Positions 43,715 through 51,373 of a stretch of DNA of 64,000 nucleotides are shown one piece after another. The stretch covers positions 20,394,745 to 20,458,744 of the forward strand of contig CM075102.1 of NCBI GenBank assembly GCA_037576195.1, written 5' to 3'. Below the pieces are notes generated by a model, which made no database searches, had not been told where the DNA came from, and worked only from the letters and a program-made list of their open reading frames with translations. The translations under genes were made by a program, and so were the position numbers. The DNA is from Phytoseiulus persimilis (lineage: Eukaryota > Arthropoda > Arachnida > Mesostigmata > Phytoseiidae). The stretch's first letter is position 1. Every line of letters starts with the position of its first letter.

Positions 43715-46700
43715 CGATTGAATATTTTCGAATCCTTCCCTCTTCTCCGCCATTCCCCGTCACAGGCTGTAGTTCTATCTCCGTTATGAGGAGGAACATG
43801 TGCGAATGGGGAGGGAAGAGTGAGATTCGCGAAAAACGAGAGTAGTGGAATTATTCAGGGGACTTCGCAGTTTCATTCCAGTAGTTCGACGGTCTCGTCG
43901 TTTACACTCGCCCGGGAGGCTAGTCGAATGACACACGGGGAAATTCAACTTCACATGAGAAAATCGTGACGCTTTTAGGCGAGAACTCGTTCAGGGCCGA
44001 GGCAATGAGATCGGAGATGAGTCTTCCAAAGCTCCGAGTCGGTAGACCCGCACCGGCTCAGCTTTTCGTCCTTTTCTCGCTATTCTGAGCATGAATGCAA
44101 GATTTCTTACTAGACCTCGCAGCAGTCCCGGCTCACGGTTGAGGATTAGCAAGAAGCGCGGAGCCATACGACTGGATAACCGCAAAAAACGCAAGACTAG
44201 CGGTTTGCGGGCGCGCCGATTTTTTGTTTTTCGTCCGCACATGGGAAAGCGGAGCCTCCGAATTTTTCCTTCGTAAGCTGTGGACCATTGAGTAACGGAT
44301 CCCCAGCTTCAGGATAACGTGATCGCTATCGAGATATGCTTTCTGCAATTCACGATGGAAGCTCCACGAAGAGGCTGAGCTTCGAGATGACCCTTCCGAT
44401 TCTTGACGACACGTAGTCGCGAAAAGTTCTCCTGCATTCTAATTGGCTTCACGCGGACTCCAGACGGCGCGTCGCTTGGGGTTCGATGCGGGGTAAGAAC
44501 CGGTGTCAGCGGACGTCTGCCGCTGGCCACCTTCAAACCTAGTGGTCTCGGTTTCCCGTAAATACCCTCCATCCCCTCTCCCATTCGTCCGCAGAGACAA
44601 CTCGCGGTCAACTGGTTTCGTGACTGACTTATTGGACGCATTTCAACAATCAACGCTGAAGCGACTTCCGTTATTCCATGAGGAATTTTCGTACTCGACC
44701 TCCCGAGATTTCTAGAAGATGCCGACCTCTCCTGCTGGGCCGACCTCGATTGAAAACCAGCAAACGGAAGAGCCAAAACGGCGCGTCCGAGAGACGTCCT
44801 GAAACGTGCTCTCGGGCGGATTCGACTCCATTCAAACTGAATTCATCGCTAAAACTCGCTGGAGTTTGTTACAAGAGTGAAACCACCTCAATCAGCCATT
44901 CTCGGAACTCTCCAACGAAAGTATGATGTGGATTCGATGGAGTCTTCAAGAAGGTCAGGCCTCAAAAGACATATTTTCCCTATCAAGGTGGCTTGAAGAA
45001 TCCATTCTGCTAGAACGTATTCAAAGGAGCCTTCAGAGGCTCCGTTGAGTTCCGCTCATTCCATCCTGCCAATAACCTGCCATCATTGGACAGAGATCAA
45101 GTGAAATCAATGAGCTCTATGTAAAGATCTATATATATAAAAATCCAGGGTCTGTTTGTTTGTTTGTTTGTTTGTTTGTTTGTTTGTTTGTTTGTCCTCA
45201 ATAGGCTCCTCCGGTATTGATCGGATCGACTTGGAACAAACTGCATAATGTAGGGCGACTCACCGGGAAGGACATAGGCCACCCACTCCTCCCCCCTCCC
45301 CCTCCCCTCCTTCCCCCCTCGCGATTTACCCCAACTTTGACCCCCTCCATACTGTCACCCGCATCCAAATTCTGACGATAAGGTGCACCGCCCCGTTATG
45401 ACGCCAGCCAGACTCATCCCATTGTCATCGGATATCCTTCCCCACCTCCTCTCCTATACATCTATATATATAAAAATCCAGGGTCTGTTTGTTTGTTTGT
45501 TTGTTTGTTTGTTTGTTTGTTTGTTTGTCCTCAATAGGCTCCTCCGGTATTGATCGGATCGACTTGGAACAAACTGCATAATGTAGGGCGACTCACCGGG
45601 AAGGACATAGGCCACCCACTCCTCCCCCCTCCCCCTCCCCTCCTTCCCCCCTCGCGATTTACCCCAACTTTGACCCCCTCCATACTGTCACCCGCATCCA
45701 AATTCTGACGATAAGGTGCACCGCCCCGTTATGACGCCAGCCAGACTCATCCCATTGTCATCGGATATCCTTCCCCACCTCCTCTCCTATACATCTATCA
45801 TAAAAATCTATCATAAAAATTCCTGGAGGGGTGATTTCGAGACCAATAAGGCCATTACTTCCCAACTCTGGAGGGGTGATTCCGAGACCAATCTGGCCAT
45901 TAGTTTCCAACTCTGGAGGGGTAAATACGAGACCAATCTGGCCTTTAGTTTCTAACTCTGGAGGGCTGATTGCGAGACCAATCTGGACATTACTTTCCAA
46001 CTTTGGAGGGGTGATTCCGAGACCAATCTGGCCATTACTTTCCAACTCTGGAGGGGTGATTCCGGGACCAATCTGGCCATTACTTTCCAACTCTGGAGGG
46101 ATGATTCCGGTGCCAATTTGACCATTAGTTTTCAACTCTGGAGGGGTGATTCCGGTATCAATCTGGCCATTACTTTCCAACTCTGGAGGGGTGATTCCGG
46201 TGCCAATTTGACCATTAGTTTTCAACTCTGGAGGGGTGTTTCCGGTATCAATCTGGCCATTACTTTCCAACTCTGGAGGGGTGATTCCGGTGCCAATTTG
46301 ACCATTAGTTTTCAACTCTGGAGGGGTGATTCCGAGACCAATCTGGCCATTACTTTCCAACTCTGGAGGGGTGATTCCGAGACCAATCTGGACATTACTT
46401 TCCAACTCTGTAGGGGTGATTCCGGAACCTATCTGGCCATCACTTTCCAACTCTGGAGGGGTGATTCCGAGACCAATCTGGCCATTACTTTCCAACTCTG
46501 GAGGGGTGATTCTCAGACCAATCTGGCCATTACTTCCCAACTCTGGAGGGGTGATTCTGAGACCAATCTGAGCATTACTTCCCAACTCTGGAGGGGTGAT
46601 TCTGGGAGCAATCTGACCATTAGTTTCCAACTCTGGAGGAGTGATTCCGAGACCAATCTGACCATTACTTTCCAACTCTGGAGGGGTGATTCTGAGACCA

Positions 46701-49700
46701 ATCTGAGCATTACTTTCCAACTCTGTAGGGGTGATTCCGGAACCTATCTGGCCATCACTTTCCAACTCTGGAGGGGTGATTCCGAGACCAATCTGGCCAT
46801 TACTTTCCAACTCTGGAGGGGTGATTTCGGGACCAATCTGACCATTACTTCCCAACTCTAGAAGGGTGATTCCGGGACCAATCTGAGCATTACTTCCCAA
46901 CTCTGTAGGGGTGATTCTGGGAGCAATCTGACCATTAGTTTCCAACTCTGGAGGAGTGATTCCGAGACCAATCTGAGCATTACTTTCCAACTCTGTAGGG
47001 GTGATTCTGGGAGCAATCTGACCATTAGTTTCCAACTCTGGAGGGATGATTCTGAGACCAATCTGAGCATTACTTTACAACTCTGTAGGGGTGATTCCGG
47101 AACCTATCTGGCCATCACTTTCCAACTCTGGAGGGGTGATTCCGAGACCAATCTGGCCATTACTTTCCAACTCTGGAGGGGTGATTTCGGGACCAATCTG
47201 ACCATTACTTCCCAACTCTAGAAGGGTGATTCCGGGACCAATCTGAGCATTACTTCCCAACTCTGTAGGGGTGATTCTGGGAGCAATCTGACCATTAGTT
47301 TCCAACTCTGGAGGAGTGATTCCGAGACCAATCTGAGCATTACTTTCCAACTCTGTAGGGGTGATTCTGGGAGCAATCTGACCATTAGTTTCCAACTCTG
47401 GAGGGGTGATTCTGAGACCAATCTGAGCATTACTTTCCAACTCTGTAGGGGTGATTCTGGGAGCAATCTGACCATTAGTTTCCAACTCTGGAGGAGTGAT
47501 TCCGAGACCAATCTGAGCATTACTTCCCAACTCTGTAGGGGTGATTCTGGGAGCAATCTGACCATTAGTTTCCAACTCTGGAGGGGAGATTCTGAGACCA
47601 ATCTGAGCATTACTTTCCAACTCTGTAGGGGTGATTCCGGAACCTATCTGGCCATCACTTTCCAACTCTGGAGGGGTGATTCCGAGACCAATCTGGCCAT
47701 TACTTTCCAACTCTGGAGGGGTGATTCTCAGACCAATCTGACCATTAGTTTCCAACTCTGGAGGAGTGATTCCGAGACCAATCTGAGCATTACTTTCCAA
47801 CTCTGTAGGGGTGATTCCGGGTTCAATCTGAGGATTACTTTCCAACTCTGGAGGATTGATTCCGGGACCAATCTGAGCATCTTTTTCCAACTCTGGAGGG
47901 GCGATTCCGGGATCAATCTGAGCATCTTTCTCCAACTCTGGAGGGGCGATTCCGGGACCAATCTGAGCATCATTTTCCAACTCTGGAGGGGTGATCTCGA
48001 GACAAATCTAACTATACTTTTCAAAACCAGGGGGGTGATTCCGGGACCAATCTGACCATGCTTCTCCGAATATGAAGGGGTGATTACGACACCAATCTGA
48101 CCATACTTCTCAAAACCATGATGCTGACCAAGTGAAGAGAAAGGAAAGTGCCTCGATTCCAGGTCAGAATCCTATCGAGAATCGGTGGCCACTCCCGAAG
48201 GTCTCATGACACTACATTTAAGGCAATGTGTGTCTGTCAGCAGTAGACTCCCGAAGCAAGGGACGGGTCGGCCAGCGTAGTCGGCCGAAGGCCGGCTAGT
48301 CTATCATAAAAATCTATCATAAAAATTCCTGGAGGGGTGATTTCGAGACCAATAAGGCCATTACTTCCCAACTCTGGAGGGGTGATTCCGAGACCAATCT
48401 GGCCATTAGTTTCCAACTCTGGAGGGGTAAATACGAGACCAATCTGGCCTTTAGTTTCTAACTCTGGAGGGCTGATTGCGAGACCAATCTGGACATTACT
48501 TTCCAACTTTGGAGGGGTGATTCCGAGACCAATCTGGCCATTACTTTCCAACTCTGGAGGGGTGATTCCGGGACCAATCTGGCCATTACTTTCCAACTCT
48601 GGAGGGATGATTCCGGTGCCAATTTGACCATTAGTTTTCAACTCTGGAGGGGTGATTCCGGTATCAATCTGGCCATTACTTTCCAACTCTGGAGGGGTGA
48701 TTCCGGTGCCAATTTGACCATTAGTTTTCAACTCTGGAGGGGTGTTTCCGGTATCAATCTGGCCATTACTTTCCAACTCTGGAGGGGTGATTCCGGTGCC
48801 AATTTGACCATTAGTTTTCAACTCTGGAGGGGTGATTCCGAGACCAATCTGGCCATTACTTTCCAACTCTGGAGGGGTGATTCCGAGACCAATCTGGACA
48901 TTACTTTCCAACTCTGTAGGGGTGATTCCGGAACCTATCTGGCCATCACTTTCCAACTCTGGAGGGGTGATTCCGAGACCAATCTGGCCATTACTTTCCA
49001 ACTCTGGAGGGGTGATTCTCAGACCAATCTGGCCATTACTTCCCAACTCTGGAGGGGTGATTCTGAGACCAATCTGAGCATTACTTCCCAACTCTGGAGG
49101 GGTGATTCTGGGAGCAATCTGACCATTAGTTTCCAACTCTGGAGGAGTGATTCCGAGACCAATCTGACCATTACTTTCCAACTCTGGAGGGGTGATTCTG
49201 AGACCAATCTGAGCATTACTTTCCAACTCTGTAGGGGTGATTCCGGAACCTATCTGGCCATCACTTTCCAACTCTGGAGGGGTGATTCCGAGACCAATCT
49301 GGCCATTACTTTCCAACTCTGGAGGGGTGATTTCGGGACCAATCTGACCATTACTTCCCAACTCTAGAAGGGTGATTCCGGGACCAATCTGAGCATTACT
49401 TCCCAACTCTGTAGGGGTGATTCTGGGAGCAATCTGACCATTAGTTTCCAACTCTGGAGGAGTGATTCCGAGACCAATCTGAGCATTACTTTCCAACTCT
49501 GTAGGGGTGATTCTGGGAGCAATCTGACCATTAGTTTCCAACTCTGGAGGGATGATTCTGAGACCAATCTGAGCATTACTTTACAACTCTGTAGGGGTGA
49601 TTCCGGAACCTATCTGGCCATCACTTTCCAACTCTGGAGGGGTGATTCCGAGACCAATCTGGCCATTACTTTCCAACTCTGGAGGGGTGATTTCGGGACC

Positions 49701-51373
49701 AATCTGACCATTACTTCCCAACTCTAGAAGGGTGATTCCGGGACCAATCTGAGCATTACTTCCCAACTCTGTAGGGGTGATTCTGGGAGCAATCTGACCA
49801 TTAGTTTCCAACTCTGGAGGAGTGATTCCGAGACCAATCTGAGCATTACTTTCCAACTCTGTAGGGGTGATTCTGGGAGCAATCTGACCATTAGTTTCCA
49901 ACTCTGGAGGGGTGATTCTGAGACCAATCTGAGCATTACTTTCCAACTCTGTAGGGGTGATTCTGGGAGCAATCTGACCATTAGTTTCCAACTCTGGAGG
50001 AGTGATTCCGAGACCAATCTGAGCATTACTTCCCAACTCTGTAGGGGTGATTCTGGGAGCAATCTGACCATTAGTTTCCAACTCTGGAGGGGAGATTCTG
50101 AGACCAATCTGAGCATTACTTTCCAACTCTGTAGGGGTGATTCCGGAACCTATCTGGCCATCACTTTCCAACTCTGGAGGGGTGATTCCGAGACCAATCT
50201 GGCCATTACTTTCCAACTCTGGAGGGGTGATTCTCAGACCAATCTGACCATTAGTTTCCAACTCTGGAGGAGTGATTCCGAGACCAATCTGAGCATTACT
50301 TTCCAACTCTGTAGGGGTGATTCCGGGTTCAATCTGAGGATTACTTTCCAACTCTGGAGGATTGATTCCGGGACCAATCTGAGCATCTTTTTCCAACTCT
50401 GGAGGGGCGATTCCGGGATCAATCTGAGCATCTTTCTCCAACTCTGGAGGGGCGATTCCGGGACCAATCTGAGCATCATTTTCCAACTCTGGAGGGGTGA
50501 TCTCGAGACAAATCTAACTATACTTTTCAAAACCAGGGGGGTGATTCCGGGACCAATCTGACCATGCTTCTCCGAATATGAAGGGGTGATTACGACACCA
50601 ATCTGACCATACTTCTCAAAACCATGATGCTGACCAAGTGAAGAGAAAGGAAAGTGCCTCGATTCCAGGTCAGAATCCTATCGAGAATCGGTGGCCACTC
50701 CCGAAGGTCTCATGACACTACATTTAAGGCAATGTGTGTCTGTCAGCAGTAGACTCCCGAAGCAAGGGACGGGTCGGCCAGCGTAGTCGGCCGAAGGCCG
50801 GCTAGTGTTCTATAATTGTGCAAGATCCCGTTCGCGTTCATCAAGGCTATGCTCCTTTGAAACTCCTTCGATGGAGTATTCATACAGGCCCACAAGCCTA
50901 AAACGGATCCGTTGTTATCGAAATGGGTTGCTACTCGCGGCTTTTTTTCTTTCGAGAGCTTTTGTCAAAGGGAGAATCCGAGATATTAAAGTGGAGCTCT
51001 AAGTAATGTATCCGAGGAATGACGGCCGGCAAGTGGGATGATTTTCGTCGAATGTTTCCGAAGTCGATCCACTGACGAGGGATAGATCATAAAGTCACTG
51101 GAGACGAAGGGGGCATTGCCCTCATAGTTGAGCGTCAAGGGCCTCCAACTCCTGGAAGATCACTTCAGATGCTTGTCTCAAAGTTTTTACCTTGTTATCG
51201 GGTTTCCGCTTGGCGTCATAGATCTTCCACACAAACTCCGGACCTGCGGAGCCGACCAGGCGTCCAATCTCGAACTGCTGACTGATGGGATTCTGTTCAA
51301 TGGGGGAGGGAGGGCCCTGCTTAAACTTCGGCAGTCCTCCGCCACCGCCTGGATTCACCAACTCTGCGATCAT
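22780..51373 (-). CDS. SCYL2: SCYL2-like pseudokinase (whole gene, 11 coding exons)
   Basis: Eleven exons joined on the minus strand (51373-51191, 32891-32731, 30744-30450, 30265-30050, 28218-28102, 27864-27739, 26768-26592, 25605-25369, 24084-23928, 23674-23556, 22890-22780) encode 632 residues. Residues about 29-320 form a kinase-like domain and about 325-630 HEAT-like helical repeats, the order seen in SCYL2/CVAK104. The catalytic HRD is HRN (residues 180-182) and DFG is replaced by MEF (201-203), so it should be a pseudokinase, as expected for the family. Known family role: binds clathrin and AP2 and acts in trafficking between trans-Golgi, endosomes and plasma membrane. The model stops before the roughly 300-residue C-terminal tail of vertebrate SCYL2. 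All junctions are GT-AG and frame-consistent. The extreme N terminus and the 3' end are the uncertain parts; identity of the middle is secure. Confidence 0.93.
22891..23555 (-). other. SCYL2 intron 10
   Basis: 665 bases between exons 10 and 11; donor gtgagt, acceptor tcttgcag. A 92-codon plus-strand frame (22951-23229) has no recognised match. Confidence 0.7.
23556..23674 (-). CDS. SCYL2: SCYL2 coding exon 10 (HEAT-like repeats)
   Basis: Residues 557-596. The split codon CGG is completed at the junction, then IYKRMMADKRYGLTVNLLAT and KVLPTLIPVAVSPALKLEQ match human GIYKCTFTHKKLG and KVLPHLIPLSIENNLNLNQ. Acceptor ctttgcag, donor GAACAG|gtgagt, phase 0. The 210-codon plus-strand frame at 23211-23843 over this exon is an antisense shadow. 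Confidence 0.94.
23928..24084 (-). CDS. SCYL2: SCYL2 coding exon 9 (HEAT-like repeats)
   Basis: Residues 505-556 plus one base. SSQVQANALTCIEQVMDKLE, then LDQVLPMLEKAKVQDPTIL correspond to the human segment VRVNSLVCLGKILEYLDKW. Acceptor gatttcag, donor GTCGTCC|gtaagt, phase 1. Confidence 0.94.
24085..25368 (-). other. SCYL2 intron 8
   Basis: 1,284 bases. Contains the longest homopolymer of the window (21 C at 25280-25300), fewer than 70 bases inside the donor. A 170-codon plus-strand frame (24435-24947) shows no recognisable domain. Confidence 0.65.
25280..25300 (+). repeat. poly(C) run, 21 bases
   Basis: Uninterrupted C21 on the plus strand in SCYL2 intron 8; the transcript would carry G21 close to the donor of exon 8. 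Confidence 0.95.
25369..25605 (-). CDS. SCYL2: SCYL2 coding exon 8 (HEAT-like repeats)
   Basis: Residues 426-504. ATVTLLENIDILMAKTPKAD, then IKSDVLPMVYNSFES, IQCASIRAAAHVAEYLDENA and VLPRTRSVFEA align along the family's core repeats (human KTPPDEIKNSVLPMVYRALE). Acceptor ctttccag, donor CAAAAG|gtgagt, phase 0. A run of 21 C lies in the following intron. Confidence 0.96.
25606..26591 (-). other. SCYL2 intron 7
   Basis: 986 bases. A C-rich tract broken by one T lies at about 26425-26444. Nothing else recognised. Confidence 0.7.
26592..26768 (-). CDS. SCYL2: SCYL2 coding exon 7 (HEAT-like repeats)
   Basis: Residues 367-425. WWQHILPSLQAEL and ALQPLLYMIGNSSSDEYQTI followed by ILPVFRSVF are helical repeat pairs matching the human segment with RILPCLTSEF and ILPELGPVF. 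Acceptor gttgcag after a T-rich tract, donor GTCCAG|gtgagc, phase 0. Confidence 0.95.
26769..27738 (-). other. SCYL2 intron 6
   Basis: 970 bases with donor gtgggt and a pyrimidine-rich acceptor. Nothing recognised inside. Confidence 0.7.
27739..27864 (-). CDS. SCYL2: SCYL2 coding exon 6 (link to HEAT repeats)
   Basis: Residues 325-366. IKYFMDPGVHALQYLDVIQM matches the segment of SCYL2 where the kinase domain passes into the helical repeats. It ends NLKQTLPAIPK. Acceptor ctttgcag, donor CCAAAG|gtgggt, phase 0. Confidence 0.95.
28102..28218 (-). CDS. SCYL2: SCYL2 coding exon 5 (end of kinase-like domain)
   Basis: Residues 286-324. LLSLLEKIPHHLQEPLQGLL followed by MDAKRRPNSQNF is the helix H-I region with the RP arginine typical of kinase C-lobes. 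Acceptor ggtttcag, donor TCCATC|gtaagt, phase 0. Confidence 0.95.
28219..30049 (-). other. SCYL2 intron 4
   Basis: 1,831 bases. Contains a short CCG/CGT trinucleotide tract near 28984-29010. A plus-strand frame at 29737-29934 (65 codons with an ATG) has a helical composition, but nothing supports it as a gene. Confidence 0.65.
28984..29010 (+). repeat. (CCG/CGT)n trinucleotide tract
   Basis: CGCCGCCGCC followed by GTC repeats in SCYL2 intron 4. Confidence 0.75.
30050..30265 (-). CDS. SCYL2: SCYL2 coding exon 4 (kinase C-lobe)
   Basis: Residues 214-285. Contains DLDYTPPEVH (the APE-loop counterpart) and SPQSDMFSLGLLITALFNQG, the helix F region with its conserved aspartate, as in human SCYL2 (SDMYSLG). 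Acceptor tcaacag, donor GAAGAG|gtacgc, phase 0. The 184-base intron before it is the shortest in the gene. Confidence 0.96.
30450..30744 (-). CDS. SCYL2: SCYL2 coding exon 3 (degenerate catalytic loop)
   Basis: Residues 115-213. SDSLAFATEPVMGSLANIL is the signature hinge of the SCYL family. YKYGLLQLTEALLFLH is helix E. Then IIHRNVCPSSVIVNKKG is the catalytic loop, with N in place of the HRD aspartate, and WKLAGMEF has MEF in place of DFG. Both losses argue against phosphotransfer. Acceptor tttacag, donor CCCATG|gtgaga; 295 bases plus the two carried over keep the frame, ending phase 0. Confidence 0.96.
30745..32730 (-). other. SCYL2 intron 2
   Basis: 1,986 bases, donor gtgagt, acceptor tttacag. 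No repeat or nested gene recognised; open frames on both strands are short and overlap one another. Confidence 0.7.
32731..32891 (-). CDS. SCYL2: SCYL2 coding exon 2
   Basis: Residues 62-114 plus two bases. Begins DASIFFFEKK, the beta-3 strand where a kinase carries its ATP-binding lysine (K70 or K71 here). It continues through KRKETITEILRFGVRQL and HPKLLSVLHPIEES, the alphaC and beta-4 region of SCYL2. Acceptor: pyrimidine-rich tract ending tttcag; donor TCGAG|gtgagt, phase 2. The intron before it is 18.3 kb and contains the Helitron. Confidence 0.95.
33125..33136 (+). repeat. poly(C) run, 12 bases
   Basis: Uninterrupted C12 on the plus strand, in SCYL2 intron 1 about 230 bases before exon 2. 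Confidence 0.95.
41490..41506 (+). repeat. poly(C) run, 17 bases
   Basis: Uninterrupted C17 on the plus strand in SCYL2 intron 1. Confidence 0.95.
42334..42349 (+). repeat. poly(C) run, 16 bases
   Basis: Uninterrupted C16 on the plus strand in SCYL2 intron 1, within 850 bases of the C17 run. Confidence 0.95.
43656..43707 (+). repeat. (TC)n microsatellite
   Basis: About 25 TC units with one interruption, in SCYL2 intron 1. It yields an artificial SLSL frame. Confidence 0.9.
45128..45460 (+). repeat. 333-bp Helitron 5'-end unit, copy 1
   Basis: Begins TCTATATATATAAAAATCC, then GTTT repeats (about 45153-45194), then a pyrimidine-rich stretch, ending ...CTATACA. It has no hairpin or CTRR of its own, so it is a 5' fragment. 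Apparently identical to the next 333 bases, including the length of the GTTT run. Confidence 0.9.
45461..45793 (+). repeat. 333-bp Helitron 5'-end unit, copy 2
   Basis: Direct tandem copy of 45128-45460; I found no difference by eye. It ends in A at 45793, immediately followed by the TC of the first 2,506-bp unit, so the A|TC boundary is repeated at each join. Confidence 0.9.
45825..48118 (+). repeat. 45-bp minisatellite array in Helitron unit 1
   Basis: About 51 head-to-tail copies of a 45-base unit (core GGAGGGGTGATTCCGAGACC, then a variable CAATCTGG segment and TTTCCAACTCT). The last three copies are degenerate. A higher-order repeat of eight units is visible: 46741-47040 matches 47101-47400 at a 360-base offset. 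On the minus strand one frame reads as a 15-residue repeat (GITPPELESNGQIGL). Several frames on both strands stay open because 45 is a multiple of three, so this is not evidence of coding. Confidence 0.95.
48280..48296 (+). other. Helitron 3' hairpin (unit 1)
   Basis: Same 7-bp stem and GAA loop as in unit 2, ending in CTAG at 48296-48299. The TC of unit 2 begins at the next base, so this is an internal terminator that was not used, or was bypassed, when the dimer formed. Confidence 0.8.
48331..50624 (+). repeat. 45-bp minisatellite array in Helitron unit 2
   Basis: The same array as in unit 1, shifted by 2,506 bases, with the same order of variant units as far as I compared. Two arrays with the same order of variants mean the whole 2,506-bp block was copied as one piece, not expanded separately. 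Confidence 0.95.
50786..50802 (+). other. Helitron 3' hairpin (unit 2)
   Basis: GTCGGCC-GAA-GGCCGGC: a 7-bp stem (one G-T wobble) with a 3-base loop. The last C of the stem is the C of CTAG. Helitrons usually have a GC-rich hairpin about ten bases before CTRR, so a hairpin touching the terminus is tighter than usual. Confidence 0.8.
50806..51190 (-). other. SCYL2 intron 1, part between Helitron and exon 1
   Basis: Short unique sequence between the Helitron's 3' end and the exon 1 donor. The Helitron lies less than 400 bases inside the 5' end of the intron. Nothing else seen. Confidence 0.7.
51191..51373 (-). CDS. SCYL2: SCYL2 coding exon 1 (N terminus, start of kinase-like domain)
   Basis: Residues 1-61. 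The conserved block NPISQQFEIGRLVGSAGP followed by FVWKIYDAKRK matches the first strands of the SCYL2 pseudokinase. The donor is AACAAG|gtaaaa, phase 0. I chose the ATG at 51373 because it leaves about 29 residues before NPIS, the usual distance. Those residues (glycine- and proline-rich) do not resemble the family's usual amphipathic start. The frame stays open upstream to a TAA near 51,528, and a possible acceptor (CCCCAG) sits just before 51389. A different upstream first exon is therefore possible. An out-of-frame ATG at 51419 precedes the chosen start. Confidence 0.8.

What the first reader, a model, noticed from the sequence alone, without database searches (positions are those of the whole stretch)
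45794..50805. Head-to-tail Helitron dimer: 3' CTAG joined directly to 5' TC
Two 2,506-base units abut so that the CTAG of the first (48296-48299) is followed at once by the TC of the second (48300), with no A or T between. A second independent insertion would need an A|T target, and none exists at the join. The structure is what read-through past the 3' terminator, or integration of a concatemeric or circular intermediate, would leave in rolling-circle transposition. The near-zero divergence suggests it is young. Unequal crossing-over is the main alternative mechanism.
Basis: partly seen in the sequence, partly recalled or inferred. Interest (0 to 1): 0.8.

Follow-up and report, generated by a model that had tools for sequence, protein, structure and literature searches.

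The report
Helitron inserted inside its own twin
A jumping gene of the Helitron kind appears to have copied itself into an identical copy of itself, at a spot inside the element that looks like its preferred landing site, which gives the back-to-back pair without any unusual mechanism; such joins were already known in bats and maize.

Summary
The two 2,506-bp units are real, abut as CTAG|TC and are identical. They are not whole elements. Elsewhere in this genome the family has a further ~333-bp 5' module (B) joined to the 2,506-bp module (C). In the window B is duplicated too: A|B1 B2 C1 C2|T. One event explains all of it: a complete B2+C1 element (45461-48299, 2,839 bp) inserted between A45460 and T48300, the internal B|C joint of an identical element B1...C2. 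Scored with a motif from 66 host flanks, that joint ranks first of 399 A|T sites in the element. So the claim that no A|T target exists is wrong: the T is the first base of the older copy. Four other fully read loci have the B B C C order with diverged copies; at two of them subfamily markers pair B1 with C2 and B2 with C1, as nesting predicts. Read-through, concatemers and unequal exchange do not give B B C C in one step, although a near-identical C C C array elsewhere shows that pure tandem copies also occur. CTAG|TC joins and self-insertion are already published (PMC2267711, PMC5148889).

The parts
45127..45127 (+). Host A at the left edge of the outer element
   Evidence: sequence
45128..45460 (+). 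B1: 5' module of the outer element (TCTATATATATAAAAATCC..., TTTG microsatellite, ends TATACA)
   Evidence: identical to B2; 54 B matches listed genome-wide, the two of the window included (a lower bound)
45461..48299 (+). Inner complete element B2+C1, 2,839 bp, TC...CTAG, inserted between A45460 and T48300
   Evidence: structure shared with single B+C elements elsewhere; A left and T right
45461..45793 (+). B2: 5' module of the inner element
45794..48299 (+).
45823..48108 (+). 45-bp minisatellite of C1, 50.8 copies
48278..48298 (+). Terminal palindrome of C1 (9-bp stem, 3-base loop) that overlaps CTAG
   Evidence: z-score of the 64-base fold only -1.13
48300..50805 (+).
48329..50614 (+). 45-bp minisatellite of C2, 50.8 copies
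50784..50804 (+). Terminal palindrome of C2
   Evidence: same sequence as 48278-48298
50806..50806 (+). Host T at the right edge; its flank fits the family's target motif (3 of 6,304 A|T sites in the rest of the window score as high)

Best explanation
This is a non-autonomous Helitron (5' module B about 333 bp, then module C with a second, internal 5'-end-like sequence, a 45-bp minisatellite and a CTAG end) that received a copy of itself. A copy made from the B start to its CTAG inserted at the A|T of the B|C joint of an identical element, giving A|B1-[B2-C1]-C2|T. Shown: the B B C C order, exact identity, correct A and T at the joints, the rank of the joint as a target, and the same architecture with diverged copies elsewhere. 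Inferred: that the window pair arose by insertion and not by two exact duplications; that the donor was the same element (or its sister or allele), since no other identical C copy is listed in the assembly; and that an autonomous Rep/helicase Helitron such as the one at C3:251325-245363 supplies the enzyme.
For: B is duplicated as well as C, each exactly at element boundaries. The undisturbed joint (20 bp of B end + 31 bp of C start) occurs exactly in 7 other stretches of those held and in the window's inner copy. Five B B C C loci were read in full (window, C2:50988221, C2:51247500, C3:24331700, C1:9607470); in all five the base left of each B is A and the base right of each CTAG is T. In the four others inner and outer differ: B1 v B2 match at 324/334, 316/331, 321/332 and 320/326 aligned bases, and the 3' ends (191 bp) at 180/191, 185/191, 171/188 and 182/191, so those are not duplications. 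At two of them markers at the joint can be paired. C2:51247500: outer B1 (ACTACCT) with outer C2 (AAATACC), inner B2 (ACCCCCT) with inner C1 (AAATATC). C1:9607470: outer B1 (TATACA) with outer C2 (CATAAAAATC), inner B2 (TGTACA) with inner C1 (CATGAAAATC). These are the pairings of uninterrupted elements. A B|B joint lies directly upstream (within 6 kb, no other listed junction between) of 16 of 37 CTAG|C joints but 3 of 34 CTAG|B joints, Fisher p=0.0012. A motif from 66 unique host flanks ranks the B|C joint first of 399 A|T sites in the pre-insertion element, the second 13-mer of C second and B+4 third. Joins are seen at all three: C+13 at 4 places; B+4 at 3 exact places, at two of which the inner copy's start is held and is preceded by TCTA, the outer element's first four bases. 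Closest other C copy is 97%.
Against: The window copies are identical, so no marker can show at this locus which B belongs to which C. A different locus (C2:20266874) has C C C of 2,151 bp with 0-4 differences, so pure tandem multiplication of C also happens. 16 of 38 B|B joints have no CTAG|5'-end joint within 6 kb downstream and 4 have CTAG|B first; these need further steps. Junction rows inside one array are not independent, so the Fisher value is optimistic. The pairing test rests on few uninterrupted reference joints (two for ACTACCT). TCTA left of a copy can occur by chance in AT-rich flanks. The motif is partly AT-richness.
Confidence: 0.82

Rival explanations
1. Read-through past the first CTAG, or integration of a concatemer or multimeric circle, laid down two copies at once.
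For: Perfect CTAG|TC joint and identity; near-identical C C C array at C2:20266874; tandem arrays in a bat and the silkworm are thought to arise by bypass of a termination signal (PMC4067079, section 15).
Against: A concatemer of the whole element gives B C B C, one of C alone gives B C C; the window is B B C C. The four diverged B B C C loci cannot be concatemers of one element.
Confidence: 0.07
2. Unequal crossing-over or replication slippage duplicated B and C separately.
For: Needs no transposase; large duplications occur in another array of the family, a 9.5-kb repeat at C1:9607470 with nine consecutive 500-base blocks without a mismatch.
Against: Needs two independent events, both ending exactly at element termini, with 1 base of shared sequence at the C joint; same order with diverged copies at four loci.
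Confidence: 0.07
3. Assembly error duplicated a single element.
For: Exact copies and no reads to check.
Against: An assembler would be expected to duplicate a contiguous block, not nest one element in another (inference); the same order is present at other loci with distinguishable copies.
Confidence: 0.04

Closest known systems
Adjacent maize Helitrons No.1/No.2 at r1 (Du et al. 2008, PMC2267711; passages seen)
   Same: CTAG joined to TC with a G/T joint; the paper offers canonical insertion at the A|T made by host A and the T of the older 5' end as one of two models
   Different: The two maize elements differ in content; the order of insertion stayed open; no second 5' module in the passages seen
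Self-inserted FoHelis with several 5' termini (Chellapan et al. 2016, PMC5148889; passages and section 16 seen)
   Same: Self-insertion, and transposition from the leftmost 5' end to the first 3' end giving elements with two 5' termini
   Different: Fungal non-canonical Helitrons; duplicated 5' parts typically under 200 bp; no target motif tied to the element's own 5' end in what I saw
Nested maize helitrons with multiple termini (Dong et al. 2011, PMC3288121; passages seen)
   Same: Nested insertion as the source of multi-terminus elements
   Different: The worked example has three 3' termini; not exact head-to-tail twins
Tandem Helitrons of Myotis lucifugus (Pritham and Feschotte; not seen, as cited in PMC2267711)
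   Same: Perfect head-to-tail joints without an A between
   Different: Interpreted there as tandem repeats and not as insertions

Membership tests
Helitron (canonical) | 5' TC and 3' CTRR | tested here: met
   TC at 45461, 45794 and 48300; CTAG ending at 48299 and 50805; 57 of 59 3' ends in the stretches held (found with up to 3 substitutions) are CTAG
Helitron (canonical) | Insertion between A and T without target duplication | tested here: met
   Of 37 exact B starts, 10 follow CTAG, 10 follow another B, and 16 of the other 17 follow A; 57 of 57 CTAG ends are followed by T. Absence of a target duplication was judged by eye on the window's flanks only
Helitron (canonical) | Palindrome about 10-12 bases upstream of the 3' end | tested here: not met
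   A 9-bp stem is present but overlaps CTAG and is not set back; z-score -1.13; distance criterion from passages of PMC4067079 and PMC5148889
Helitron (canonical) | Autonomous partner with Rep and PIF1-type helicase and the same ends | tested here: met
   C3 open frame of 1,680 codons as translated: Helitron_like_N 1.2e-60, PIF1 1e-62, Pif1_2B 1.2e-17; its element ends with the same GGCCGAAGGCCGGCTAG and starts TCATAAAAAT. That it moves this family is inferred
Helentron / HINE | T-T insertion, subterminal inverted repeats, endonuclease domain in the partner | tested here: not met
   A|T insertion; no endonuclease family among the 5 Pfam matches; subterminal inverted repeats were not searched for
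Rolling-circle concatemer | Whole units repeat in order (B C B C) | tested here: not met
   Order is B B C C

The most novel reading that the evidence does not exclude
The element carries its own best landing site: its 5' ends resemble the family's target motif (T, five bases, ATAAA), and the internal one at the B|C joint beats every other A|T site in it. Self-insertion there would be a built-in route that makes head-to-tail twins, elements with several 5' ends, and clusters (21 of the first 100 listed 3' ends abut a family 5' end; a few of these sit in the same array). Tandem Helitron arrays read as rolling-circle read-through elsewhere might then partly be chains of ordinary insertions.
Probability: 0.4. 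Interest if true: 0.55.

Novelty: new member of a known kind. Interest (0 to 1): 0.38.

Why it matters
Head-to-tail joints and tandem arrays have been cited as support for rolling-circle transposition of Helitrons (PMC5876387, passage). Here the same joint follows from an ordinary A|T insertion, and a family with a two-part 5' region lets the two models be told apart by module order and by subfamily markers. The genome lists 16 candidate loci for that test, of which five were read in full here.

Tried and rejected
Rejected: the idea that the 2,506-bp unit is the full element (genome copies show B+C); the idea that the ends are those of a Helentron with a T-T target (no endonuclease match in the partner; left base A); concatemer as the general mechanism (diverged copies in four nested loci). 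An early pattern for the B|C joint was badly chosen: it missed the form with two 13-mers and its counts are not used. Two further loci with the B B C C order were read only in part (C4:12930700, C3:239800) and their B1/B2 alignments were poor and not used. Folding of the 5' ends gave nothing. The value 1/C(399,3) is post hoc and is not used as evidence. The species was not identified. With the fuzzy end patterns (2-3 substitutions) the rest of the window holds no other copy of the family ends; ARAGORN with its bacterial setting finds no tRNA.

Limits: the host motif rests on the first 100 listed of 425 3' ends (coordinate order); 21 with family 5' ends were set aside and 13 repeats of a flank were dropped, leaving 66. 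The tool states that match counts of its DNA search are lower bounds.

Full report
What is there. The two units of the finding are exact: 45794-48299 and 48300-50805, 2,506 bp each, no mismatch, joined CTAG|TC. Directly upstream lie two exact 333-bp copies, 45128-45460 and 45461-45793. The first starts after A45127; the second copy of the big unit ends before T50806. Calling the 333-bp piece B and the 2,506-bp piece C, the window reads A|B1 B2 C1 C2|T.

What the element is. The genome search listed 61 matching stretches for C, 40 for its unique 3' 191 bp and 54 for B; the tool calls such counts lower bounds. The 60 loci cut out merge into 36 stretches; later fetches added to them. In these the ordinary form is B followed by C. 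Of 37 exact B starts 10 follow CTAG, 10 follow another B, and 16 of the other 17 follow A; 57 of 59 3' ends are CTAG, and 57 of 57 of these are followed by T. The start of C (TCTATCATAAAAAT...) therefore sits inside the element and looks like a second 5' end. In the window the six open frames of 220 codons or more all lie in this element and mostly in its minisatellite, so no transposase is seen. An open Rep/helicase frame (1,680 codons; Helitron_like_N, PIF1, Pif1_2B) lies in a Helitron at C3:251325-245363 (-), which starts TC, ends with the same 17 bases and stands in an array with members of this family. That it mobilises the family is inference.

Why nested insertion. B B C C follows in one step if a whole B C element enters the B|C joint of another: B1-[B2-C1]-C2. 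The target is then A45460|T48300, a proper A|T site, and the right-hand joint must read CTAG|TC because the T is the first base of the older copy's C. Four other fully read loci have the same order with distinguishable copies: C2:50988221, C2:51247500, C3:24331700 and C1:9607470. At C2:50988221 the two C are 88% identical over the best 2.4-kb alignment.

Pairing of modules. Markers flank the joint. In uninterrupted elements ACTACCT goes with AAATACC (2 joints), ACCC-type with AAATATC (5 joints in 4 stretches, two of them copies in one array) and TGTACA with CATGAAAATC, while TATACA of the ACCTCCT type goes with CATAAAAATC. At C2:51247500 and at C1:9607470 outer pairs with outer and inner with inner. 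At the other nested loci the markers do not discriminate.

Genome-wide, B|B joints occur 38 times and CTAG|B 34 times (both up to 1 mismatch) and CTAG|C 37 times (exact 16-mer); reversed controls are 0 in each. A B|B joint is the nearest upstream junction within 6 kb for 16 of 37 CTAG|C but 3 of 34 CTAG|B (Fisher p=0.0012), as nesting predicts; rows within one array are not independent. Seen from the B|B side, the first CTAG|5'-end joint within 6 kb is CTAG|C for 18, CTAG|B for 4 and none for 16 of 38. The last group fits elements copied from the leftmost B to the first CTAG, a route proposed for fungal Helitrons (PMC5148889 section 16), but this was not tested here.

Target motif. Of 425 3' ends found with up to 1 mismatch, 100 are listed: 79 have other flanks, 21 abut the family's own 5' ends (10 C, 10 B, 1 four bases inside B). 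The 66 unique other flanks show T, then about five freer bases, then ATAAA. Scored with this motif, the C start exceeds all 6,304 A|T sites of the rest of the window (45000-51000 left out); 25 sites reach the B start. Within the pre-insertion element the B|C joint ranks 1 of 399, the second 13-mer of C ranks 2, B+4 ranks 3 and the B start itself 6. Joins are found at each: the window and others at the first; four upstream joins at C+13; three exact joins at B+4, two of which have the inner start in hand and show TCTA left of it. Part of this motif is AT-richness, but the B start, with more A+T than the C start, scores lower.

Against. Tandem multiplication without an extra B also happens: C2:20266874 has three C of 2,151 bp with 0-4 differences (the first only partly read, 1,691 bp). 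The window's copies are identical, so the pairing test cannot be made on the window itself. The absence of another identical C copy among the listed matches (best other 97%) suggests that the donor was the element itself, a sister or an allele; this is inference.

Comparison. Du et al. 2008 (PMC2267711, passages) describe CTAG|TC neighbours in maize and name insertion at the A|T formed by host A and the older element's T as one of two models; they cite the bat case as tandem repeats. Dong et al. 2011 (PMC3288121, passages) and Chellapan et al. 2016 (PMC5148889, passages and section 16) describe nested or self-inserted Helitrons with several termini. Hence the kind is known. I did not see the own-5'-end-as-target point in the listings of the eight answered paper searches or in the passages read; the library holds only open-licence papers, and one bat paper that I asked for is not held.

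Noticed in passing
C3:239800-255200 (L061, L062): A chain of different Helitrons joined CTAG|T or CTGG|TC, including a Rep/helicase element of 5,963 bp between non-autonomous ones.
   Followed up: partly
C1:9624813, 9625313, 9625813: Three CTAG|C joints at exact 500-base spacing, which suggests a short tandem array of a small unit.
   Followed up: no
C1:9607470-9624079: A 9.5-kb repeat within a Helitron array, with nine consecutive 500-base blocks without a mismatch.
   Followed up: partly
C2:6236736-6607297: Twelve 3' ends with the same 17-base flank, and one with a single difference, on both strands: probably copies of one insertion spread by segmental duplication.
   Followed up: no
window 45758-50486: The 45-bp minisatellite region keeps open frames of up to 434 codons on the minus strand and 247 on the plus strand, as expected for a repeat unit divisible by three without stops; coding was not tested.
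   Followed up: no
window 48278-48298: The terminal palindrome overlaps the CTAG and is not set back by about 11 bases as in canonical Helitrons.
   Followed up: partly
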